A stretch of DNA of 59,566 nt from a virus. The notes beneath the pieces are model-generated. The model was given only the letters and a program-made list of their open reading frames with translations. It was not told the origin of the DNA and did not search any database. The position numbers were made by a program, and so were the translations under genes. This document shows, one piece after another, positions 28,594-56,005 of this stretch. Location of the stretch: IMG/VR virus record IMGVR_UViG_3300046796_000573, positions 1 to 59,566 of that record; one strand, written 5' to 3'. The number at the start of each line of letters is the position of its first letter. The stretch's first letter is position 1.

Positions 28594-29384
28594 GGTCGCC
28601 CCGTACGCTCGATCTCGAGCTCGACGTCGCGCACCAGGTCGAGGAGCACCTGGCGCAGGTCGGCGAGGCGCGTCTTCGGCTGGTCCAGCGCCTTGCGCAC
28701 CGCGCACGCGAACGTCACGCCGTTCTGCACCGCGTCTTCACGCGCGCAATCGGTGTGCTCGGTGCACACGGCCTTCCGCAGGTACTGCCGCCGATCGTCC
28801 CGCCACGCCAGCCACTGCGCCAGGCGGTACATCAGCCGCACGGTGTAGCCCGAGGTGGCGCCGTAGCGCGCGCACACGGCACGCTCCGCTTCCTGCCGGT
28901 ACGCGGTCATGCGGTGGCAGGGCCGATTGCTGCCGGTCGAGTACCACCGCGTGATCACCCGCGACGCGATCGCGAGCTCCTCCTGCCTCACGCGCGGCCC
29001 GCGCTCTCGCCGTTCAAGCGCAACTGCCGTCGCAGCGCTACGCCGTGGCGTTGGCCGGTGGACGACCCACCGGCCGGTCGCCGTCGCGTACACCTGACCC
29101 AGGACTGGCTGAACGGCTTCGTCGAGCGCTCGCTCATGGCGGATGCGTGGTGGCCCAGCCAGCTGGAGCGGTGCAGGCACGCCACCGAGCATCAGCACCG
29201 GCAGCTCCTGGCCCTCGCGTGCGCCGGCCAGCGCCATGCCCACCGGCACCTCGTCGGCCCACCAGCCAGCGTTCACGGGTACCGGTGAGGGCGGTGCAGC
29301 GAGCCACTGCTTCGGCTCGCTGGCTGCCACACGCGCAGCGCCGCACCCCATGCACTCGCACCCATCGGCGTGCGGCGTGCTCAC
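28590..29384 (-). CDS. Unknown basic protein
   Basis: 264 residues from GTG, the start that overlaps the methyltransferase stop (GTGA). A Cys cluster near the N-terminus (CECMGC) is followed by a Pro/Ala-rich region. The second half is basic and helical ('MYRLAQWLAWRDDRRQYLRK'). Longer readings extend back over the methyltransferase gene but are shadows. Function unknown. Confidence 0.6.
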   Translation of the reverse strand: MSTPHADGCECMGCGAARVAASEPKQWLAAPPSPVPVNAGWWADEVPVGMALAGAREGQELPVLMLGGVPAPLQLAGPPRIRHERALDEAVQPVLGQVYATATGRWVVHRPTPRRSAATAVALERRERGPRVRQEELAIASRVITRWYSTGSNRPCHRMTAYRQEAERAVCARYGATSGYTVRLMYRLAQWLAWRDDRRQYLRKAVCTEHTDCAREDAVQNGVTFACAVRKALDQPKTRLADLRQVLLDLVRDVELEIERTGRP

Positions 29385-29971
29385 GGAACCCACCCGGCCG
29401 TTCCCAGGTAGCGCTGCACCTTGCTCCGCTCCGTGCCCAGCACGATCAGCGCGGAGCCGTGCATCGGCTGCTTCCCGCGCTCGAAGCCCGGCGTGCCGTC
29501 CAGCGCCATCTGCCCGGTGTGCAGCATGAAGCGCACGCGGTCGCGCAGCAGCACCACCGATGTGCTCGAGCGCCGCCACTCCTCGGCGAAGAGCTTCGGC
29601 GTGCGCACCTGCACCATCGCGAGTTGGTCGATCGAGTAGGCGAAGAAGACGGCCCACCCGATGAGGCCCTTGCTGTACGAGCGCACCAGCTTGTCCCACC
29701 ACGGCCCGGGCGGGCTGGGCGGGTTCAGCCAGACCGACGGCGCTTCCCACGTGTCGCCGGCCAGGCCGTCGTCGGCCTCCGTCATGAAGCGATCCGCCTT
29801 CACCAGGTGGTTCGCCACCGCGCAGCTGGCCGGGTCCAGCGCGAACCTGCCGTCCAGCATGCTGCGGCATGGGTCGACGATCTCCGGTGGCGAATACCAC
29901 TCGCTGGAGATCGGCTCCGCGACGTAGTGCTGGAACAGCGCGCCCACACCTGCACCGCGCTTGCGGCTCAC
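29381..29971 (-). CDS. DNA N6-adenine methyltransferase (phage Dam family)
   Basis: 196 residues from GTG in a GTGA overlap. The family signature is clear: 'SSEWYSPPEIVDP' near the start, 'FALDPAS' (about 43-49) for cofactor binding, 'MTEADDGLAGDTW' and the catalytic 'VWLNPPS' (80-86). Enzymes of this family transfer a methyl group from SAM to adenine N6. It may protect phage DNA from host restriction. The usual tyrosine of NPPY is replaced by Ser, as in several phage members. Confidence 0.8.
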   Translation of the reverse strand: MSRKRGAGVGALFQHYVAEPISSEWYSPPEIVDPCRSMLDGRFALDPASCAVANHLVKADRFMTEADDGLAGDTWEAPSVWLNPPSPPGPWWDKLVRSYSKGLIGWAVFFAYSIDQLAMVQVRTPKLFAEEWRRSSTSVVLLRDRVRFMLHTGQMALDGTPGFERGKQPMHGSALIVLGTERSKVQRYLGTAGWVP

Positions 29972-30462
29972 GATGCGGGCTCCTGGTACTTGGTGATGCA
30001 GGCGGCGCAGACCCAGAACGGCAGTTCCGGCGTGGTGCTGCGCGGCAGCAATGCCTGCTGCCCGTGACGCTTGTCGTAGCGGCCGCACAGCTCGCACACG
30101 TGCGGCCCGTCGATGCGCCGCAGGGCATAGAGCAGCCCGGCGCAGAAGCCGTGCTCGTACGAGTCGCGCGCCGCGCCCAGGTGCTTCGCCAGCTCCGCGT
30201 CCACCAGCTCCGCGGCGCATTGCACGCTGTCGGTCACCTTCAGCTTGATGGGCCACTCGATCGGCTTCCGCATTGCGCAGCCCTGGAAGTGCCGGCGCGG
30301 GTCGGCAGCCTGGATCGCATTGCAGGTGCAGCGCTCCGGCTCCTTGCCCGGGCAGTCCTCCACGTCGGTGTTCGGATCGAATGCACCGCACAGCGTGCAG
30401 AACGGCCCGCGCGTGCCCAGCTGGTAGCTGACGTTCTCGCCGACCTCGATAACGTGCTTCAT
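29968..30462 (-). CDS. Zinc-finger-like protein
   Basis: 164 residues. Two zinc-binding regions are likely: CTLCGAF plus C-rich 'CPGKEPERCTC' near residues 22-47, and CELCGRYD with the later 'CAACI' near the C-terminus. It is coupled on both sides (ATGA, GTGA). It could be a small DNA- or RNA-binding protein; no specific family. Confidence 0.65.
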   Translation of the reverse strand: MKHVIEVGENVSYQLGTRGPFCTLCGAFDPNTDVEDCPGKEPERCTCNAIQAADPRRHFQGCAMRKPIEWPIKLKVTDSVQCAAELVDAELAKHLGAARDSYEHGFCAGLLYALRRIDGPHVCELCGRYDKRHGQQALLPRSTTPELPFWVCAACITKYQEPAS

Positions 30463-31403
30463 GACCGCACCTCGATTCCGTCCACGTCCGCGTACCCGGG
30501 CACCTGGCGCACGCGCAGCATCGGCTCGAACTCGTCGATGTCGCCGCCCTTCTTCTCCTTCAGCTTCACCGGGCGCGACCATTGCGGCTCGAACACCAGC
30601 CGCGGGTTCACGTCCTCGCGCAGGCCGTCCGGCGTCCAGTCGTAGGGCTGCTCGCCGTACTGCTTGACGAACGGGGCCACCCCATTCTCGAGGCAGTCGT
30701 GGACGATGTTGCGCACCCACGACAGATGCATCGGGCGCGCGCCAGGGCCGCTCTCGCCGCCAACGATCACCCAATCGGGCCCGCCCACCACCAGGTAATC
30801 GCTGATGTCGACGCTCTCGAGGAGCGGCTCCATCGAATAGAACTTGACCGGCGCAGGCACCTTGAACAGGTGCGGCGCACGCTCGGCCAGGCGCTCCTCG
30901 TCTTCGATCGTGGTGCCGGCCCAGGCATTACCAGGCCACCGATCTGCCCACGATGCAGGCGCGAGCCGGACCATGTTCTGCGGCCGCTTGGTGAGCAGCA
31001 GCCAGTCCAGGCTCGGTGTCTTCGCGATCAGGTCGAACAGCCGCGCGCGCGGTGCCACCAGATCGGGACGGTCCTCGAAGACGTCTGCGAGCGACGCGCA
31101 GAACACGCGGCGCCTGCGCCCCTTCGGGCCGTAGCCCTCCGCCTCGCGCTGCCAACGCAGCGGCTGATTCCAATACGACTCGACGCGCATCAGGCGCGGG
31201 GCCTTCACGCCCCAGTGCTCGCCGCGCTCCACGTCCTTGGTCATGTCCAGCGCCTGGAGCAGCCGCTTCTCTGCCGGGCGCGGGTGGAAGCGCGCGTTGC
31301 GCTCCTCCGCGTAGCAGTGCTTGCAGCCCGGGCTGACCTTCGCGCAGCCTTCCCACGGATTGAAGGTGTGGTGCGCCCACTGAATCTTCGTGTCGGCTCC
31401 CAT
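30459..31403 (-). CDS. Gp37/Gp68-family protein (DUF5131, radical-SAM-like)
   Basis: 314 residues. The N-terminus is typical of the phage Gp37/Gp68 family: 'TKIQWAHHTFNPWEGC' followed by 'KVSPGCKHCYAEE', which holds three cysteines arranged like an iron-sulphur site. Further family blocks are 'LFDLIAKTPSLDWLLLTKRP' and 'VIVGGESGPGARPM'. The biochemical role of this family is not known to me; a radical-SAM type reaction is often proposed. Coupled to the next gene by ATGA. Confidence 0.75.
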   Translation of the reverse strand: MGADTKIQWAHHTFNPWEGCAKVSPGCKHCYAEERNARFHPRPAEKRLLQALDMTKDVERGEHWGVKAPRLMRVESYWNQPLRWQREAEGYGPKGRRRRVFCASLADVFEDRPDLVAPRARLFDLIAKTPSLDWLLLTKRPQNMVRLAPASWADRWPGNAWAGTTIEDEERLAERAPHLFKVPAPVKFYSMEPLLESVDISDYLVVGGPDWVIVGGESGPGARPMHLSWVRNIVHDCLENGVAPFVKQYGEQPYDWTPDGLREDVNPRLVFEPQWSRPVKLKEKKGGDIDEFEPMLRVRQVPGYADVDGIEVRS

Positions 31404-40117: not shown

Positions 40118-40428
40118 CGCCAGGCCTCGCCCTTCAGCCACCCGCGCTCGCCCGCGTTGCGCACGTAGCCGCCTTCCATCAGACGGCCCAGCGCCTGCCA
40201 CACGCGCCGCTCCTGGAGGCCGGTGGCGGCCGCGATCTCCTCCGCGCGCAGGCCCCACCCGTGCTTCGCGAGCACTTCGATCGTGCGGATCTCGTGCTCC
40301 GAGCGCTTCCGTGCGGCCTGCGCGTTGCGGCGCGTGCGGCGCCTGTGCTGCTCGAGGCAACGCTCCGCGAGCGTGGCCCAACCGCCCGCGACGATCGCGG
40401 TGCTCACCGTTCTGCACGTGGTCGTCAT
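40114..40428 (-). CDS. Winged-helix DNA-binding protein
   Basis: 104 residues. 'RTIEVLAKHGWGLRAEEIAA' followed by 'TGLQERRVWQALGRLMEGGY' (about 50-88) is a typical winged helix, with the wing 'VRNAGERGWLKG' at the end. The first 40 residues are basic. A transcription regulator of the early region is likely. Coupled by ATGA on both sides. Confidence 0.7.
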   Translation of the reverse strand: MTTTCRTVSTAIVAGGWATLAERCLEQHRRRTRRNAQAARKRSEHEIRTIEVLAKHGWGLRAEEIAAATGLQERRVWQALGRLMEGGYVRNAGERGWLKGEAWR

Positions 40429-41171
40429 GACGTCGCTCCGATCTGTCGCAGTGTCTCTTCGCGCCAGGCCATCGCGTAGCGCGCGCAGTTGGCGCAGCTG
40501 GCGTGCTCGCACCCGTGCAGGGGCTCGGCGCGGCGCGCGTCGTAGCTCCACGCCAGCGAGTCGCTCGAGGCCAGCAGTCGTCCTCCTGGTGATGCCAGTC
40601 CGGTGCGCTTGAAGCCGAACCCGTGCAGGCGCAGGCCCTCGTCCGCCAGCCACGCCAGGAGGAGCGAGGCGGACACCGTGTTCTGCCGGCGGCACACCGT
40701 GCCCACGCCCACCAGCGGCTCCGCCAGCAGGTCCACGCCGGCAGCGGTGTACGCGTCCACGTGATCCAGGTAGTCGCCGCGCGCCCAGCCTTGCAGCACG
40801 GGCACGATCGGCAGCTCCGGCGCCAGCGCGCGCAGCTCGAGGTAGTTGGCCAGCGTGCGCGCCTGGTGCTCCGCCACGGTCAGCCCGGTGCGACGCAACA
40901 TCTCCGGCTCGCACATCCAGTCCTGTGGTGCTGCCCAGGCCAGCGAGCCGATGTCGTCGCGGTACCGGCGCACCTGCGCGACGTAGGCGCGTGCGTCGAG
41001 CTGCCACGCGCCATGCATCGACAGCTCGGTGAAGCCGCCGCTGTCCAGCGCCCACGTCGCAGCCGCACGGGGCAGGCGCTTCATCGTCTCCAGCCGGCGG
41101 CGCGAGACGAACAGCGGCACGCCCAGCGTGGCCAGCCAGTTGACCTGATGCGTGCCCAGGTAGAACGTCAC
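40425..41171 (-). CDS. dpdA: DpdA-like tRNA-guanine-transglycosylase family enzyme (DNA deazaguanine insertion)
   Basis: 248 residues from GTG in a GTGA overlap. The sequence matches phage DpdA/TGT-like enzymes: 'TWALDSGGFTELS' (39-51), 'APQDWMCEP' (81-89), 'PVLQGW', 'GVGTVCRRQ' (155-163), 'HGFGFK' (183-188), 'ASSDSLAWSY' (201-210) and a zinc site Cys221/Cys226/Cys229. DpdA swaps guanine in DNA for a 7-deazaguanine and so protects phage DNA from restriction. No preQ0-synthesis gene (FolE, QueD, QueE, QueC) is visible, so the host would have to supply the base. Confidence 0.75.
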   Translation of the reverse strand: MTFYLGTHQVNWLATLGVPLFVSRRRLETMKRLPRAAATWALDSGGFTELSMHGAWQLDARAYVAQVRRYRDDIGSLAWAAPQDWMCEPEMLRRTGLTVAEHQARTLANYLELRALAPELPIVPVLQGWARGDYLDHVDAYTAAGVDLLAEPLVGVGTVCRRQNTVSASLLLAWLADEGLRLHGFGFKRTGLASPGGRLLASSDSLAWSYDARRAEPLHGCEHASCANCARYAMAWREETLRQIGATS

Positions 41172-41892: not shown

Positions 41893-42425
41893 CACGCCAC
41901 CCCTTCCACGCTGAGCGCGCGCTTGCACGGCGCGGTGCGCTCCAGGTCGGCACGCAGGTCGCCAAGCAACTGGGCCCGCTCCACACGGCACAGCGTCTCG
42001 TCGCTGCGGGCCGCTGCGATGTCCTGCACCACGCGGCAGCGCTTGCAGGTGCACGGGTCCAGCACGGCCAGGCGCTCCGCTGCGTCGGGCCCCAGCAGGG
42101 CGCGCACCAGCACGCGCAGGCTGCGCTTCGCCTCGCGCAGGCGCAGGGCGCCGTCGTCCACGCGGCGCTGCTGCACCCGGCGCTGGTCCGCGTCGTCGGC
42201 GATCCTGCCGGCGGCCACGTCGCGGTCGTCGAGCTCGATCGATCGCTGGTCGCGCGCCAGTAGCGTGCCCAGCTCGTCCACGCGCTCGGCCTCGTCCAGC
42301 AGGGCGCGCTCGCCCGGCCTCGTCACCAGGCTGGTGATGCCATCGCCGAGATCCACCTGCCCACACGACAGCGCACGCGCGACTTCCGCGTGCACCGCCT
42401 CCCACCACTGCGTCGATCGCTTCAT
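41892..42425 (-). CDS. Unknown charged protein
   Basis: 177 residues; ATG chosen by overlap with the upstream stop. It is highly charged and helical in the middle (QRRVDDGALRLREAKRSLRV), with CTCKRC near residue 136 that could bind metal. Function unknown. Confidence 0.6.
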   Translation of the reverse strand: MKRSTQWWEAVHAEVARALSCGQVDLGDGITSLVTRPGERALLDEAERVDELGTLLARDQRSIELDDRDVAAGRIADDADQRRVQQRRVDDGALRLREAKRSLRVLVRALLGPDAAERLAVLDPCTCKRCRVVQDIAAARSDETLCRVERAQLLGDLRADLERTAPCKRALSVEGVA

Positions 42426-42874
42426 CGTGCGCTCCACTTCTGGTCCGGTCCGAACGGGTTCGCCTTGCCCTGGTCATGCTTCGCGCGCCCGGTGCCGCCG
42501 CACGCCGGGCACTCGATGGACGTCTCGTTGTTGACGCCTTCGCCCTTGCAGGTGGGGCAGCAGCGGCCCTCGCCCTGGGCGTGCCGTGCGCAGCAGTGGA
42601 TCGAGATCACGCGGTCGCCGGGGATGTCGTGCTTGGCCTTGGCCATCGGCGAGAACGGGCTCCAGCTGCGGCCCCGCACGCGATCGCTGGCCGCGTCGAT
42701 CCGCGCGGCGTGCTCCACGTCGATGACGGGCACCTGCACGCGGTGCAGCCCGGGCCTGCGCGCCGTGGTCACCCACGGGTCGCCGATCACCTGGGCTTCG
42801 AACCTGCGCCCGTTGGCCAGCTGCACCACGATCCGCGCGCCGGTGCGCAGCGCCAGCAGCTCGCGGGCGGTCAC
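42422..42874 (-). CDS. Protein with DnaJ-type zinc-finger repeats
   Basis: 150 residues from GTG. An N-terminal small beta domain ('GARIVVQLANGRRFEAQVIG') is followed by CCPTCKGEG and CPACGGTG, two CxxCxGxG units as in the DnaJ cysteine-rich domain. Phages use such modules in small protein- or nucleic-acid-binding factors. Specific role unknown. Confidence 0.65.
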   Translation of the reverse strand: MTARELLALRTGARIVVQLANGRRFEAQVIGDPWVTTARRPGLHRVQVPVIDVEHAARIDAASDRVRGRSWSPFSPMAKAKHDIPGDRVISIHCCARHAQGEGRCCPTCKGEGVNNETSIECPACGGTGRAKHDQGKANPFGPDQKWSAR

Positions 42875-49086: not shown

Positions 49087-49920
49087 ATGGCTAAGGCGAA
49101 GCGCAAGCCGCACGTGAGCGGCGAGGTGGAGCTGGTGGAGCTGGCAACGGTGCGGCCCAACGGGTGGAACCCCAACGAGTGCGACGCGCACACGCTGGCG
49201 TCGATCGAGCGCGGCTTCACCGAGGAGGGCTGGCTGAAGTCCCACGCGCTGACGATCTGGCGCACCGACGAGAAGGGCGTGGAGAAGCGCCTGATCATCG
49301 ACGGCGAGCACCGGTGGGAGGTGGGCACGCGCCTCGACATGAAGCACGGCCCGGGCATGTTCATCGACGGCATCACCGAGGCGCAGGCCAAGGCGCTGAC
49401 CATCAAGCTGGACAAGCGGCGCGGCGCGTTCCTCGCCGACCCGCTCGCCGCACTGCTCGCCGAGCTGCGCGCCACGTTGAACAGCGACGACCTGGCGCAG
49501 GAGCTGGGCTTCGCGCCGGAGGAGCTGCTCAAGGCGCTGCCCAGCCCGGAGAACCTTGCCGACGGCAGCGCGTTCCCACCGAAGCCGCCGGCACCAGGGC
49601 CGAACAACGTGAACCCAACGCAGGGCGCGGGCAGCCCGTACACGCGCGTGGTGCAGCTGTACCTGTCGATCGACGACCACGCCGCGTACCACGGCACGTA
49701 CGGCGGCGCGTACCTGGGGTTCCCGGAGTTCTTCTGCGGCGTGGACATGCGCGACGGCGACGCGATCCTGTTCGACCCGCACGCGTGGCACGCCGTGACC
49801 GACTTCGAGGACAAGGGCGACGACGCGGAGCGGATCAGCGTCGTGTACTACCTGCGCTCGAGGATCGACCAGTGCCAGACACCGGAGCTCGAGCTCCAGA
49901 GAGCGCAGGCTGCACGATGA
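49087..49920 (+). CDS. ParB-like domain fused to C-terminal part of a TET/JBP-like 2OG-Fe(II) oxygenase
   Basis: 277 residues, AAGGAG before ATG. Residues 15-115 form a ParB/Srx-like domain with 'LIIDGEHRWEVG' (69-80). Residues 186-193 (TRVVQLYL) resemble the conserved strand of phage ParB-like proteins. From about 203 the sequence changes to a pattern of TET/JBP-type phage oxygenases: 'GTYGGAYLGFPEF', 'GVDMRDGDAILFDPHAWHAV' with His235, and 'ERISVVYYLR' with Arg249. The upstream HxD iron motif is missing. An in-frame deletion joining two neighbouring genes is the simplest explanation. Confidence 0.6.
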   Translation: MAKAKRKPHVSGEVELVELATVRPNGWNPNECDAHTLASIERGFTEEGWLKSHALTIWRTDEKGVEKRLIIDGEHRWEVGTRLDMKHGPGMFIDGITEAQAKALTIKLDKRRGAFLADPLAALLAELRATLNSDDLAQELGFAPEELLKALPSPENLADGSAFPPKPPAPGPNNVNPTQGAGSPYTRVVQLYLSIDDHAAYHGTYGGAYLGFPEFFCGVDMRDGDAILFDPHAWHAVTDFEDKGDDAERISVVYYLRSRIDQCQTPELELQRAQAAR

Positions 49921-50705
49921 TCGTCATCCCCTCACACCGTAGATGCGATTCGCTGGCGGCCATCGCCCTGGCGTGGCTCGCGTCTACCGACGTCCCGCTG
50001 AGCGAGGTGGTGGTCGTCGTCAGCGACGAGGCCGATCGCGCCGAGTACAGCGCCCGCCTGCCGGTGCGCGTGGTGCTGCCGCCGCAACGCCAAAGCACCG
50101 GGCTGACCGACAAGCTGAACGCCATCCACTACGGCATGGGCGACCGCGAGCTGGTGCTGCTCGAGGACGACATCGTTGTGTGCGGCGACGATCGCAAACC
50201 AATCACCAAGCTTCAGCGCGTGCTGGACGAGGGCGCCGAAGCGATTGCCGGCGGTGGGCTTTGGGGAGTCGCCAGCTCGTCCAACCCATTCTTCTACGGG
50301 CGGCCAGGTGCGGGCTTCCGCTTCATCGCCGGGTTCATCTGGGGCTCCCGCGGCAACGCCGATCCCGAGCTCGCATGCACGGTGCCGGTGAAGGCCGACT
50401 ACGAGCGCACCTGCCGCTACTATCGGCGGTTCGGGACGCTGCACAGGGTGGGCGGTGTGGGGGCCAAGGCCAAGGCCAGCTACGCGCTCGCCGGCGGCAT
50501 CCAAGCAAACCACACACACGAGGCCCGCCAGGTGCTGGAACGGCAGGCCGTGCTCGATCTCTGCCAGGCGTTCCCGCACTGGCTGGCGCCCAACGAGCAA
50601 CGCAAGAGCGGGTTCCCCGAGCTGCGGCTGCTCAAGGCACCGGCGAGCGCACCGGCGTATCCGCCTGCACCGTTGGAGGCTTGGCCGTGCGGCTGGCTGC
50701 TCTAG
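49917..50705 (+). CDS. TAGT-like glycosyltransferase (GT-A fold), DNA base modification
   Basis: 262 residues, ATGA overlap. It starts with MIVIPSHRR and a Rossmann-like strand (VVVVVSDEADR), followed by 'GLTDKLNAIHYGMGDRELV' and an acidic metal motif LLEDDI (81-86, EDD 83-85). The pattern resembles TET/JBP-associated glycosyltransferases of phages, which attach sugars to hydroxymethylated bases. Its neighbours (oxygenase-like, kinase, nucleotidyltransferase) support this. A different sugar acceptor cannot be excluded. Confidence 0.65.
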   Translation: MIVIPSHRRCDSLAAIALAWLASTDVPLSEVVVVVSDEADRAEYSARLPVRVVLPPQRQSTGLTDKLNAIHYGMGDRELVLLEDDIVVCGDDRKPITKLQRVLDEGAEAIAGGGLWGVASSSNPFFYGRPGAGFRFIAGFIWGSRGNADPELACTVPVKADYERTCRYYRRFGTLHRVGGVGAKAKASYALAGGIQANHTHEARQVLERQAVLDLCQAFPHWLAPNEQRKSGFPELRLLKAPASAPAYPPAPLEAWPCGWLL

Positions 50706-51418
50706 GGCACAGCGGCTCCAGCGTGCGCAAGGTCGGCCCGCTGGTGGTGAAGACGGGCCCGCTGCGCATGCTCGAAGGCGTGGCGAAGCAGCGGGCGAAC
50801 CCCAGCGTGCGGCTGCCGTCCGTGCCTGTGGTGGCAGCGTGGGCGATGGGCGATCGCGGCGTGGTGGTGATGCGCCACCAGGCTGGCCTCGCCGCCGTCG
50901 AACGCGTGGACGTGGCGCGCACCGCAGCGCACGCCGCGATCGCCTACGTGCGTAGCAACGTGCTGCCCGGCAGCGTGTCGGCGTGGCGCCTGGCCGAGCG
51001 CCTGGTGGACACCGTGAAGACCTGGCGCGCCAAGTCGGTGGCAAAGGCGCTCGCCACGCTGAGCCTGCCCGCGGGCCGCTGCCACGGCGACCTGACGCTC
51101 TCGAACATCATCGTGGAGGGCTCGCGCGCCCACGTGCTGGACTTCGCGTCGCTGCCCATCGAGAGCCCAGCGATCGACGCGTGCAAGCTGCTCCAGGACG
51201 CGGTGCACGGGTGGGCGCTGCGCATCGCACCGCGGATCGCCGACGAGCGCGCGCTGAACGCCGCGTGCGAGGTGCTGCTGCCGGCGCTCCAGCGCCTGCC
51301 GGGCTACAGCACCTGGGGCGACGTGCTGATGGCGTGGACGCTGCTGCGTGCGTGGCCGTATGCATCGCCCGAGCTGCGGGAGTGGATCGAACGGGAGGTG
51401 GACGCGTGCATGTTCTGA
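50687..51418 (+). CDS. APH-type kinase of the modification cassette
   Basis: 243 residues from GTG, overlapping the glycosyltransferase gene by 19 bp, with GGAGG upstream. The kinase loop 'RCHGDLTLSNIIVEG' (131-145; His133, Asp135, Asn140) and the metal site 'HVLDFASL' (Asp152) are those of aminoglycoside phosphotransferase-like kinases. The N-terminal lobe is short. It could phosphorylate a sugar precursor or the modified base. Substrate unknown. Confidence 0.7.
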   Translation: MRLAALGHSGSSVRKVGPLVVKTGPLRMLEGVAKQRANPSVRLPSVPVVAAWAMGDRGVVVMRHQAGLAAVERVDVARTAAHAAIAYVRSNVLPGSVSAWRLAERLVDTVKTWRAKSVAKALATLSLPAGRCHGDLTLSNIIVEGSRAHVLDFASLPIESPAIDACKLLQDAVHGWALRIAPRIADERALNAACEVLLPALQRLPGYSTWGDVLMAWTLLRAWPYASPELREWIEREVDACMF

Positions 51419-52089
51419 TCGTCACGGCAGCGGGCACGTCGGACAGGTTCGGCGGCGAGACGAAATGGGCCCTGCGCGACCCGCGCACCGGTCACTCGCT
51501 GCTGCACTGCGCAGTGGACGGCGTGAAGGGCTGGGACCGCCTGGTGGTGGCCGTGCGCCGGCACCCGAAGGAGCACCCGGCCGAGGACTGGGCCGTGCGC
51601 GAGCTGGGCATGATGGGCGCCGACGTGGTGAAGGTGGGCGAGACGGCCAGCCACGCGGAGACGGCGCAGAAGACCATCGCCCTGGCCTGCCGCCCGGACG
51701 ACGTGGTGACCATCCGCGACGCGGACAACCGCGTGGACCTGCACCTGCGCAGCTGCAACGCCATCGGCGTGTACGTGCCGAAGAGCGGCCGCGACCGCCT
51801 CCGCACCGACGCGAAGGGCAAAGCGGGCGTCCGCCGCAGCAAGAACCGCGTGACGAACATCTTCGAGCGGCGCGGCAACGCCGACGCGTGCTTCAGCGTT
51901 GGGTGCATCACGTTCGCCAGCGCAGAGCAGGCCCGCGTCCTCCTGGACGACGGCGTGGCGCGCATCAGCACGGGCATCCAGCGGCTCATCGACCGCGGCG
52001 AGCAGGTGGCCGCCATCGAGAGCAAGGCGTTCGACGACTGGGGCACACGCGCCGCGTGGGAGCGGTACGTGGCAGAATCGAAGGCGTGA
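51406..52089 (+). CDS. Sugar/alditol nucleotidyltransferase-like enzyme
   Basis: 227 residues from GTG, overlapping the kinase gene by 13 bp, with GGGAGG upstream. The first residues, 'MHVLIVTAAGTSDRFGGETK', match the NTP-transferase loop (Gly10, Arg14, Lys20), and 'VVTIRDADNRVD' supplies the acidic metal site. Such enzymes make NDP-activated sugars or alditols. Together with the kinase and glycosyltransferase it could supply the activated group for DNA modification. GTGA overlap with the next gene. Confidence 0.65.
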   Translation: MHVLIVTAAGTSDRFGGETKWALRDPRTGHSLLHCAVDGVKGWDRLVVAVRRHPKEHPAEDWAVRELGMMGADVVKVGETASHAETAQKTIALACRPDDVVTIRDADNRVDLHLRSCNAIGVYVPKSGRDRLRTDAKGKAGVRRSKNRVTNIFERRGNADACFSVGCITFASAEQARVLLDDGVARISTGIQRLIDRGEQVAAIESKAFDDWGTRAAWERYVAESKA

Positions 52090-52307
52090 GCAAGCTGGCC
52101 GAAACACCGCCCTGGATCGCGCTCGAGCGGGACGCAGCGCATGCTGGGGCACGTGGCGAGATCGAGCGGTCGGGCATCTTGATGTGGGCCGCGTGGCGCT
52201 CGCGCAAGACGTGTCGGTGCCTGATCCCCGAGCGGCCCGGGCAGCCGTTCGCGGTGGTGCACCGGGCCTGCCCCGTCCACCCGTTGCCCGTGCGGATGCT
52301 GACGTGA
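52086..52307 (+). CDS. Small protein between the modification and packaging genes
   Basis: 73 residues from GTG, coupled on both sides by GTGA. 'ILMWAAWRSRKTCRCLIPER' is basic with CRC and a later Cys/His pair. Function unknown. Confidence 0.55.
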   Translation: MSKLAETPPWIALERDAAHAGARGEIERSGILMWAAWRSRKTCRCLIPERPGQPFAVVHRACPVHPLPVRMLT

Positions 52308-53260
52308 GCAAGCCAGGCGAGAAGTTCCCCGGCCTCGACGCCATCCGCGCCAGGGCTGCGCGCCCAGCCAGCGAGAAGAAGCGCGGTGGCAAGGCGCCCA
52401 GGCCGTACACCGCGGAGGAGCTCGCCGCTCTGCCGCCCAGCGTGCGCAAGCGCGTGCTCGCCCGCAGCACGCCCACCATGACCAAGGACGGCGTCGTCCA
52501 CGTGGGCCGCCCCAGCAAGCTCACGGAGGAGCTCATCGCCGAGGTGGTGAAGGGCATGGTCAGCGGTGCACCCGTCCAGATCGTTGCCGGTGCGCACGGC
52601 GTCAACCGCGACACGTGCAACGAGTGGCTCCGGCACGGCCAGCACCCCGAGTACGCCGGCACCCTGGAGCAGAAGTTTGCGGTCGCCGTCGCCCGGGCGC
52701 GTGACGAAGCGCTCTATGGGATGGCAGCTCGCGTCCGCACCGGTAGCCGAGGATGGCAGGGGAGCGCCTGGCTGCTGGAGCGGCTGGAGCGGGACACCTT
52801 CAAGCCGCCCACGTCGCGGCAGGAGATCTCCGGGCCGGGTGGCGGCAGCATCCAGATCACCCCGATGACCTGCACCCTGCCCGCCGAGGTGGGAGCGGAT
52901 GGCCGTGTGCTCGAGCTCGCGGCGACGTCGGTGGCTGCCGGCGTCAACGGGCTGGGCCTGGTGCAGGGGGACGCTCTGCCGAGCGGAGAGCCAGAAGCCG
53001 CGCGCGAGGGGGCCCCCAGCAACGGAGCGGACCACGGATCGCTCGGAGATCGCAAGGCGACCGCCTCGAATGGGGGCTTGACAGGTTTTGCCTACACCAA
53101 CGGCCACGGCACCAACGGCACGTCCGCGTACACGGCGCCCGAGCACCCGCTGTGCCCCAGCTGCGGGCTGCCCATCGAGGAGCGCCCGCTGCACCTGGTG
53201 GACGGCGTGGCCCACCACCTTGGGGGCTGCCCCGACCCGCCCACCAGCAACGAGGAGTGA
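52304..53260 (+). CDS. terS: Terminase small subunit (probable)
   Basis: 318 residues. 'GRPSKLTEELIAEVVKGMVS' followed by 'GAPVQIVAGAHGVNRDTCNE' and 'WLRHGQ' (about 68-112) is the helix-turn-helix of terminase small subunits, which recognise the packaging site. The C-terminal half is long and Gly/Ala-rich and ends in a possible zinc ribbon (CPSCGLPIEERP ... HHLGGC). It lies just upstream of the large subunit. The tail is unusual for a TerS. Confidence 0.65.
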   Translation: MSKPGEKFPGLDAIRARAARPASEKKRGGKAPRPYTAEELAALPPSVRKRVLARSTPTMTKDGVVHVGRPSKLTEELIAEVVKGMVSGAPVQIVAGAHGVNRDTCNEWLRHGQHPEYAGTLEQKFAVAVARARDEALYGMAARVRTGSRGWQGSAWLLERLERDTFKPPTSRQEISGPGGGSIQITPMTCTLPAEVGADGRVLELAATSVAAGVNGLGLVQGDALPSGEPEAAREGAPSNGADHGSLGDRKATASNGGLTGFAYTNGHGTNGTSAYTAPEHPLCPSCGLPIEERPLHLVDGVAHHLGGCPDPPTSNEE

Positions 53261-54568: not shown

Positions 54569-56005
54569 ATGGCCGACGGCAGCACCTGGACACCCAAGGC
54601 GGGGCCGCAGACCGTCTTCCTGGCGTGCGGCGCCTTCGAGGCGTGCACCGGTGGCATCGTCGGCGGTGGCAAGACCACCAGCCTGCTGGTCGGCGCGCTG
54701 CGCCACGTGCACCGGCCCGGCTACGCGGCGCTGATCCTGCGGCGCCACTACACCGAGCTGACCAAGGCCGACGGCCTGCTCGAGCGCGCGTGGAACCTGT
54801 ACCCGCGGTGCGGTGGCCTGCCCGCCAACGGCGGCCTCACGTGGGTGTGGCCCAGCGGCGCGCGCATCGACCTGGCGGGCATGGACGCCGAGACGGACAG
54901 GTTCAAGTTCGACGGCAGCGCCTACCAGTACGTGGCGTTCGACGAGCTCCAGACCTTCGCGCTCATCCAGTACACGTACCTGGCCAGCCGCATGCGGCAG
55001 AACGACCGCATCCTCGCCAGCGGGCCGCCCATCCCGCTGCGCCTGCGCTCGACGGCCACGCCCGGCGGCATCGGTCACGATTGGGTGGTCGCGCGCTTCG
55101 GTCCGTGGATCAGGCTGCACGATCCGGAGTACGACGGCCCGCGCGCGCAGCCTGGCGCGTGGCTGCACTATCGGATCGACCCCACCACCGAGGGCGAGGT
55201 GCTGTGCGGCGCCGACCACCCCGAGGCGATGAGCCGGTGCTTCATCCCCACGGTGATGCTCGAGTACGTCGGCGCGGAGTACCGGCGCGCGCTCACCCTG
55301 CTGGACCCGGTCACGCGGGCGCAGCGCTTGTACGGCGACTGGCTGGTGCGCCCAGGCGCTGGGCTCATGTTCCAGCGTGCGTGGTTCACCCGCGAGCGCG
55401 GGCAGCTGCTGGACCGCATGCCGCACCCGGCCGACGTGCTGTTCCGCGTGCGCGCCTACGACTTGGCAGCCACGCCCAAGAAGACGAACGAGCAGCGCGC
55501 CGCCACCGTGGCCCTGCGGATGGCGGTGCTGCGCAGTCGCCTGCTGGTGGTGGAGCACGTGCGCCGCCTGTGGGGCAGGCCGCACGAGGTGGAGCAGATG
55601 ATGAAGGAGCTGGCCGTGAGCGACGACGCGTTCCACGGCGGGCCGGTGCTCGTGTCCTTCCCCATCGACCCGGGGCAGAGCGGCATCGCCCAGCGCGACC
55701 AGCTGGCCAAGGTGCTCGAGGGGCACAGCTGGCGCGCCACGCCCGAGACCGGCGACAAGGTGGACCGCGCCAAGCCGCCCAGCGCCAGCGCCGAGGGCAA
55801 GCGCCTAGCGATCGTGAAGGGCGACTGGAACGAGGAGTTTCTGCGCGAGGCGCACGACTTCCCCATCGGCAAGCTCAAGGACCAGATCGACGCGCTGAGC
55901 CGCGCGCACCGCGAGTGCACCCGTGGCGGTGGTGCTGCGACGGCGCGGGCCGGTGGCGGCGACGGCAAGCGCGTGAGCATGCATCGGCCCGGTGGCGGCT
56001 TCTGA
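54569..56005 (+). CDS. terL: Terminase large subunit
   Basis: 478 residues; ATG is preferred over an upstream TTG in the hairpin. Walker A 'GIVGGGKTT' (29-37), Walker B 'YVAFDEL' (121-127) and the coupling motif 'STATPGG' identify the packaging ATPase. The C-terminal nuclease starts with 'VRAYDLAAT' (about 296-304). A KDQIDALSRA block near the end is typical of TerL. It cuts concatemers and drives DNA into the head. It is followed by the portal gene. Confidence 0.85.
   Translation: MADGSTWTPKAGPQTVFLACGAFEACTGGIVGGGKTTSLLVGALRHVHRPGYAALILRRHYTELTKADGLLERAWNLYPRCGGLPANGGLTWVWPSGARIDLAGMDAETDRFKFDGSAYQYVAFDELQTFALIQYTYLASRMRQNDRILASGPPIPLRLRSTATPGGIGHDWVVARFGPWIRLHDPEYDGPRAQPGAWLHYRIDPTTEGEVLCGADHPEAMSRCFIPTVMLEYVGAEYRRALTLLDPVTRAQRLYGDWLVRPGAGLMFQRAWFTRERGQLLDRMPHPADVLFRVRAYDLAATPKKTNEQRAATVALRMAVLRSRLLVVEHVRRLWGRPHEVEQMMKELAVSDDAFHGGPVLVSFPIDPGQSGIAQRDQLAKVLEGHSWRATPETGDKVDRAKPPSASAEGKRLAIVKGDWNEEFLREAHDFPIGKLKDQIDALSRAHRECTRGGGAATARAGGGDGKRVSMHRPGGGF

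What the first reader, a model, noticed from the sequence alone, without database searches (positions are those of the whole stretch)
49087..52089. Four-gene DNA hypermodification cassette led by a ParB/oxygenase fusion
A ParB-like protein, a TET/JBP-like oxygenase piece, a TAGT-like glycosyltransferase, an APH-type kinase and a nucleotidyltransferase are translationally linked by overlaps of 4, 19 and 13 bp, just before the terminase genes. Read as a pathway, a base would be hydroxylated, a small sugar or alditol phosphorylated, activated as a nucleotide, and transferred to the base. TET/JBP, ParB and TAGT genes are known neighbours in phages; the added kinase and nucleotidyltransferase suggest an unusual attached group made by the phage itself.
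Basis: partly seen in the sequence, partly recalled or inferred. Interest (0 to 1): 0.8.

Follow-up and report, generated by a model that had tools for sequence, protein, structure and literature searches.

The report
Phage DNA-sugar cassette with own activation
A phage of unknown host carries a compact gene cassette that most likely makes an activated sugar and attaches it to the phage's own DNA, but the gene that should prepare the DNA base is present only as a half without its iron-binding motif, so it is a new variation on a known theme and may not be complete in this copy.

Summary
The four overlapping genes exist as described (overlaps 4, 19, 13 bp) and run into the terminase genes. B is a TET-associated glycosyltransferase (TAGT), C an APH-fold small-molecule kinase, D a sugar-1-phosphate-type nucleotidyltransferase (NTase). 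ParB-TET-TAGT cassettes upstream of the terminase are a known phage arrangement; relatives often carry a deacetylase where this phage has C and D. C and D are a genuine pair: their relatives sit side by side in most viral and bacterial loci found, usually with a HAD domain fused to the NTase. Two phages have the same enzyme kinds: Synechococcus phage S-CBWM1 (TET-TAGT-HAD-NTase-kinase) and RB69 (SIS, NTase, APH-like kinase, HAD; arabinosyl-hmC DNA measured by others). Self-made activated sugar for DNA is thus well supported as a reading, not shown. Weak point: gene A joins most of ParB to only the last ~75 residues of a TET/JBP oxygenase; the HxD iron motif, present in all 80 relatives checked, is missing, and no second copy was found. 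The hydroxylation step is not supported here: deletion, decay or assembly error remain open. The record also encodes DpdA, a second, unrelated DNA-modification enzyme. New variant of a known kind.

The parts
49087..49920 (+). Gene A: ParB-like domain (residues 1 to ~200, ParB C-terminus missing) joined in frame to the C-terminal half of a TET/JBP oxygenase (residues ~203-277; keeps H235 and R249, lacks HxD)
   Evidence: PHROG ParB hits to residue 200; PF12851 positions 108-163 only; alignments; hhalign 98.1%, E 8.1e-14 for residues 205-276; all 80 related TETs have HxD
49917..50705 (+). Gene B: TET-associated glycosyltransferase (TAGT), EDD at residues 83-85
   Evidence: PF20691 3.6e-4; phrog_25200 7.5e-12; hhalign 99.6%, E 1.7e-24; tblastn to Arthrobacter phage Klevey TAGT 6e-9
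50687..51418 (+). Gene C: APH-fold small-molecule kinase, CHGDLTLSN and D152 intact
   Evidence: PF01636 2.8e-7; family alignment; AlphaFold2 pLDDT 85, VIA-align Z 15.7 to APH(4)-Ia, 3.5-A class matches to FN3K and LicA
51406..52089 (+). Gene D: nucleotidyltransferase of the sugar-1-phosphate (GlmU/RmlA/GalU) fold, without the HAD domain usual in its family
   Evidence: family alignment 22-30% identity with GxSxR, KW, DxD, E154, DWGT kept; profile hit to PDB 4evw 4.5e-10; model pLDDT 86, Z 21.0 to GlmU 1g97, 20.7 to 4evw
52086..52307 (+). 73-aa ORF of unknown function coupled by GTGA overlaps to D and to TerS
   Evidence: sequence; no Pfam match
52304..53260 (+). Terminase small subunit, landmark
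   Evidence: phrog_4102 4.4e-12
54569..56005 (+). Terminase large subunit, landmark
   Evidence: phrog_979 2.1e-78

Best explanation
The locus is a DNA base glycosylation cassette of the ParB-TET-TAGT kind, in the usual place before the terminase, in which the tailoring genes are a kinase and a nucleotidyltransferase. Proposed working: C phosphorylates a free sugar (or sugar-like polyol) from the host; D couples the sugar phosphate to a nucleotide, giving NDP-sugar; B (TAGT) transfers the sugar to a hydroxylated base in phage DNA; ParB may bring the system to DNA; the product shields the DNA from host nucleases. Shown here: gene order and overlaps, family and fold of B, C and D, intact catalytic motifs of C and D, conserved pairing of C with D, and the same enzyme kinds in S-CBWM1 and RB69. 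Inferred: substrate, nucleotide, base, order of steps, role of ParB, any modification at all. Unresolved: the base-hydroxylating step, since the only oxygenase in the record is a half without HxD.
For: Cassette order matches Mycobacterium phage Acadian (ParB-TET-TAGT-PIG-L-TerS-TerL), IMG/VR L091 and Arthrobacter phages Klevey and Altadena. In 80 related TET loci, ParB is found in 77, TAGT in 20 and PIG-L in 7. C and D pair: all 70 kinase loci with an NTase have it adjacent (loci); in a scan begun from the NTase, 68 of 80 have the kinase adjacent, 3 are at contig ends; also 10 of 13 bacterial loci. Catalytic residues kept. Folds: GlmU-type for D, APH/FN3K/LicA-type for C. S-CBWM1 encodes TET-TAGT-HAD-NTase-APH kinase. 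RB69, with arabinosyl-hmC (PMC6024577), encodes NTase ORF053c, APH-like ORF052c (HGDPNFSN; hhalign 83% to our kinase family), HAD-like ORF051c and SIS ORF055c. Thanatos has a 53% homologue of ORF053_052c needed for propagation (PMC12838424).
Against: Oxygenase half lacks HxD. No other source of a hydroxylated pyrimidine found. None of the 80 related TET loci carries C or D, and none of the C/D loci examined carries TAGT, so the combination rests on this record plus S-CBWM1, whose NTase is a different subfamily (13% identity). D stands on a long branch. D lacks the HAD domain that 79 of 80 relatives have.
Confidence: 0.62

Rival explanations
1. The assembled sequence hides an intact arrangement: in the real phage ParB and TET are two complete genes, and the fusion is an in-frame assembly deletion (or exists only in part of the population). 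The pathway would then be complete.
For: In relatives ParB and TET are separate neighbours. The C-terminal half keeps the metal H, the 2OG-binding R and uniform codon usage (GC3 0.96 before, 0.94 after the junction), as expected if no decay has happened. One of 80 relatives (L150) has a ParB-TET reading frame joined by a frameshift, while its near sisters have two frames.
Against: No read data; no closely related sequence was found to compare. The join is in frame, which chance gives one time in three.
Confidence: 0.35
2. The cassette is decaying: a real deletion has destroyed the oxygenase and the remaining genes are relics, so the DNA is not glycosylated.
For: Missing HxD and missing ParB C-terminus.
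Against: B, C and D are open, coupled by overlaps and keep catalytic motifs; a decaying set would be expected to drift, unless the loss is recent.
Confidence: 0.25
3. C and D serve a glycan on the host surface or virion, or another pathway, and only happen to lie behind the TAGT gene.
For: Most relatives of the pair lie in other settings: the marine virus and bacterial loci show epimerases, glycosyltransferases and aminotransferases of surface-polysaccharide type, and TAGT was found in none of 48 IMG/VR records with the pair.
Against: Here they are translationally coupled to TAGT and occupy the slot where relatives have the PIG-L deacetylase; S-CBWM1 combines the same enzyme kinds with TET-TAGT.
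Confidence: 0.12

Closest known systems
ParB-TET-TAGT-PIG-L cassette of actinophages (Mycobacterium phage Acadian, Arthrobacter phages Klevey and Altadena)
   Same: Order ParB, TET/JBP, TAGT, tailoring gene; in Acadian also directly upstream of TerS and TerL
   Different: There ParB and TET are two full genes with HxD; the tailoring gene is a PIG-L-type deacetylase, not kinase plus NTase; no kinase/NTase in 80 related loci
Synechococcus phage S-CBWM1 TET-TAGT-HAD-NTase-APH kinase run
   Same: TAGT beside an NTase and an APH kinase
   Different: Full TET, no ParB seen in the run, a separate HAD gene, NTase of the Arch_glmU/RmlA subfamily, kinase after NTase. Its function has not been tested, as far as I could find
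RB69 ORF055c, ORF053_052c, ORF051c (arabinosyl-hmC phage)
   Same: NTase plus APH-like kinase in a phage with sugar on its cytosines (PMC6024577)
   Different: Bifunctional NTase-kinase protein, SIS isomerase and HAD gene added; hmC comes from nucleotide-level synthesis in T4-like phages, not from TET; the transferase is ORF003c. The sequence link is weak for the NTase (no profile hit) and moderate for the kinase
Kinase then NTase-HAD pair of marine viruses and bacterial polysaccharide loci (e.g. Marine virus AG-345-E15)
   Same: Same two families, adjacent, same order
   Different: NTase fused to HAD; no TET or TAGT nearby
AmgK-MurU-MupP of Pseudomonas cell-wall recycling (works like)
   Same: By established knowledge: APH-type anomeric kinase, NTase and HAD phosphatase turning a free sugar into an NDP-sugar (pathway papers PMC5371407, PMC5371409 located, not read)
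   Different: Only an analogy; no sequence membership tested

Membership tests
ParB-TET-TAGT DNA-modification cassette | ParB, TET and TAGT adjacent in that order | tested here: met
   TET present only as its C-terminal half
ParB-TET-TAGT DNA-modification cassette | Position directly before the terminase genes (as in Acadian, L091) | tested here: met
TET/JBP 2OG-Fe(II) oxygenase | Complete HxD...H iron-binding triad | tested here: not met
   H235 present, HxD absent; all 80 relatives have it. Gene A is therefore not filed as an oxygenase
TET/JBP 2OG-Fe(II) oxygenase | C-terminal motif with R for 2-oxoglutarate | tested here: met
   R249 in AERISVVYY aligned with all relatives
TAGT (PF20691) | Homology over the whole domain | tested here: met
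   hhalign 99.6%, residues 2-244
TAGT (PF20691) | Score above Pfam's curated cut-off | tested here: inconclusive
   21.0 bits against 27.5; Klevey/S-CBWM1-type relatives confirm by profile
TAGT (PF20691) | DxD-type acidic motif | tested here: met
   E83-D84-D85, D84 and D85 invariant in the alignment
APH-type small-molecule kinase (PF01636) | HGDxxxxN catalytic motif and metal-binding D | tested here: met
   H133, D135, N140, D152
APH-type small-molecule kinase (PF01636) | Fold | tested here: met
   Z 15.7, 2.9 A over 221 residues to 3w0m
Sugar-1-phosphate nucleotidyltransferase | Glycine-rich N-terminal loop, DxD, fold | tested here: met
   G10, S12, R14, D105, D107; Z 21.0 to GlmU
Sugar-1-phosphate nucleotidyltransferase | Activity with a sugar phosphate and NTP | not testable with these tools
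   needs an enzyme assay
Kinase / NTase-HAD pair | HAD domain fused to the NTase | tested here: not met
   79 of 80 relatives have it, D does not
RB69-type arabinose module | NTase and kinase in one protein, with SIS and HAD genes | tested here: not met
   Separate genes; no SIS or HAD gene seen among the genes scanned. It works like this module at most

The most novel reading that the evidence does not exclude
With its oxygenase broken and a complete DpdA in the same genome, the phage may attach the sugar made by C and D to another base, for instance the 7-deazaguanine that DpdA inserts, with the ParB-TET fragment serving only as a DNA-binding or scaffolding part. Nothing here points to it directly; it is merely not excluded.
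Probability: 0.05. Interest if true: 0.85.

Novelty: new variant of a known kind. Interest (0 to 1): 0.5.

Why it matters
It joins two themes that were known apart: post-replicative base oxidation with TAGT, and a phage-encoded supply of an activated sugar. The comparison also suggests what the C-terminal half of RB69 ORF53_52c is, an APH-like kinase, which bears on how RB69 makes its UDP-arabinose, named as unresolved in PMC6024577. A two-enzyme assay could settle which sugar is activated, and DNA mass spectrometry whether it reaches the DNA. If the record is right about gene A, the cassette would also ask whether TAGT can work without its own oxygenase.

Tried and rejected
Single-protein scans of viral contigs with A, B and D gave no relative, and a TAGT alignment of five was too diverse to scan. 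S-CBWM1's TAGT found only itself. phmmer of D and of its marine relative against PDB found nothing useful; the family profile did. NCBIfam names for C (Bud32, CotS) lie far below cut-offs and were not used. A protein-kinase reading of C was considered: profile hits to Bud32-type kinases are confined to the catalytic loop, while the whole fold matches APH, FN3K and LicA best, and the pairing with an NTase fits a small-molecule kinase. Search for the missing TET half elsewhere in the record: none. Papers that would say most about TET/TAGT neighbours (NAR 2013 gkt573; PNAS 2021) are not held, so whether kinase plus NTase was already listed beside TET/TAGT there could not be checked.

Full report
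What is there. The record is a 59,566-base virus contig of IMG/VR, 70% G+C, with a tail-sheath protein, so probably a myovirus. Its host is not known; the terminase large subunit has only distant matches (at most 36%). At 49087-52089 four genes overlap by 4, 19 and 13 bases, and the overlaps continue through a 73-aa ORF into the terminase small subunit. All four score as coding under a codon model of this genome.

Gene A. The first ~200 residues are ParB-like. The rest matches only the end of TET/JBP: profile positions 108-163 of 164, confirmed by profile comparison over residues 205-276 (98.1%, E 8.1e-14). Aligned with ParB and TET proteins of related phages, the ParB lacks its last segment and the TET its first two thirds, including HxD. 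All 80 related TET reading frames examined keep an HxD-type motif. A search of the record for PF12851 found this half only. On the sequence as given, gene A should not be an active oxygenase by itself. The fragment keeps H235 and R249 and the codon usage of its neighbours, so the loss is either recent, tolerated, or an assembly fault; I cannot tell which.

Gene B. Pfam's TAGT model matches below its cut-off (21.0 against 27.5 bits), but comparison with nine other TAGTs is clear (99.6%, E 1.7e-24, residues 2-244), and the acidic EDD motif is kept.

Genes C and D. C keeps CHGDLTLSN and the metal-binding D152; D keeps the glycine-rich loop, DxD, E154 and DWGT. The models are good (pLDDT 85 and 86). 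C matches APH(4)-Ia (Z 15.7), fructosamine-3-kinase (15.3) and choline kinase LicA (14.7); rows within one unit of Z are tied, so the substrate cannot be read from this. D matches GlmU (Z 21.0), a Vibrio cholerae NDP-sugar pyrophosphorylase (4evw, 20.7) and inositol-1-phosphate CTP transferase (4jd0, 20.1); 4evw is also the best profile match (4.5e-10).

They belong together. A scan with the kinase family gave 75 viral loci; in the 70 where an NTase was also found it is adjacent in all. A scan begun from the NTase gave 80 loci: 68 have the kinase adjacent, 3 are at contig ends, 9 have none. The two scans overlap in contigs. In 13 bacterial and archaeal loci 10 are adjacent. Nearly all these NTases carry a HAD domain (79 of 80); D does not. 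D sits on a long branch. The bacterial loci look like surface-polysaccharide clusters.

The setting. ParB-TET-TAGT followed by a PIG-L deacetylase is the arrangement in Mycobacterium phage Acadian, directly before the terminase, in L091, and, away from the terminase as far as seen, in Arthrobacter phages. A scan with this TET clade gave 80 loci: ParB in 77, TAGT detected in 20, PIG-L in 7, our kinase or NTase in none. Other tailoring genes follow TET in some loci, so the slot is variable. The window carries a kinase-NTase pair in that slot.

Precedents. Synechococcus phage S-CBWM1 has TET-TAGT-HAD-NTase-APH kinase in a row; its NTase is of another subfamily. Structure search of viral models brought up RB69 ORF053c for D and, with a modest score (E 7.5e-3), ORF052c for C. 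RB69's DNA carries arabinosyl-hmC, and the two ORFs were shown to be one gene, proposed to make UDP-arabinose with the SIS protein ORF055c, though its domains were hard to assign (PMC6024577). Here ORF052c shows the HGDxxxxN motif and weak APH-type matches, ORF053c is an NTP transferase (3.1e-10), ORF055c a SIS protein, ORF051c resembles the HAD proteins. A 53% homologue, TH1_060 of Shewanella phage Thanatos, is important for propagation, while the UDP-xylose pyrophosphorylase activity shown there belongs to another protein, TH1_063 (PMC12838424). This supports kinase plus NTase as a sugar supply for DNA in phages; D itself shows no sequence match to ORF053c, so this is likeness of kind, not close kinship.

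Best reading. C phosphorylates a free sugar, D makes NDP-sugar, B puts it on a hydroxylated base. The first two steps rest on family, fold and pairing; the third on family and context; the base, the sugar and the hydroxylating step are unknown. No C5-cytosine methyltransferase or thymidylate-synthase family protein was found in the record, but the record may be incomplete and host enzymes may serve.

A second system. The same record encodes DpdA, which puts 7-deazaguanine bases into DNA (PF23859, 1.5e-91; function as in PMC6884629, located and not read). DpdA was found in none of 34 records with the TET or TAGT cassette (the search finds the window's own copy).

Verdict. New variant of a known kind.

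Noticed in passing
40425-41171 (-): A complete DpdA (7-deazaguanine DNA transglycosylase, PF23859 E 1.5e-91); closest phage copies ~58% in mycobacteriophages. Two unrelated DNA hypermodification systems in one genome; DpdA was in none of 34 sampled TET/TAGT phage records.
   Followed up: partly
29381-29947 (-): Dam-like adenine methyltransferase, match below Pfam's cut-off (PF05869, 1.2e-4).
   Followed up: no
30459-31403 (-): DUF5131 (PF07505) protein, E 1.6e-68.
   Followed up: no
42422-42874 (-): Small protein with a DnaJ-type CXXCXGXG zinc motif, weak match.
   Followed up: no
L006 813-1691: Acadian gp2, annotated queuine tRNA-ribosyltransferase, is TET/JBP-like by Pfam and by HxD; PHROG 6059 seems to carry the same name for TET proteins.
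   Followed up: partly
L109 1209-2635 (-): RB69 ORF052c has the APH-type HGDPNFSN motif, and ORF051c, annotated phosphoheptose isomerase, resembles HAD proteins. S-CBWM1's 'phosphoheptose isomerase' is likewise HAD-like.
   Followed up: partly
L141, L148, L185, L188: Variable genes after TET in ParB-TET loci: by eye, another glycosyltransferase type (L141, L185), a PLP-enzyme-like protein (L148) and a HAD-like protein (L188).
   Followed up: no
L150 5293-6831: ParB and TET run together in one frame here through an apparent frameshift; near sisters (L152, L156, L159, L167) have two frames.
   Followed up: partly
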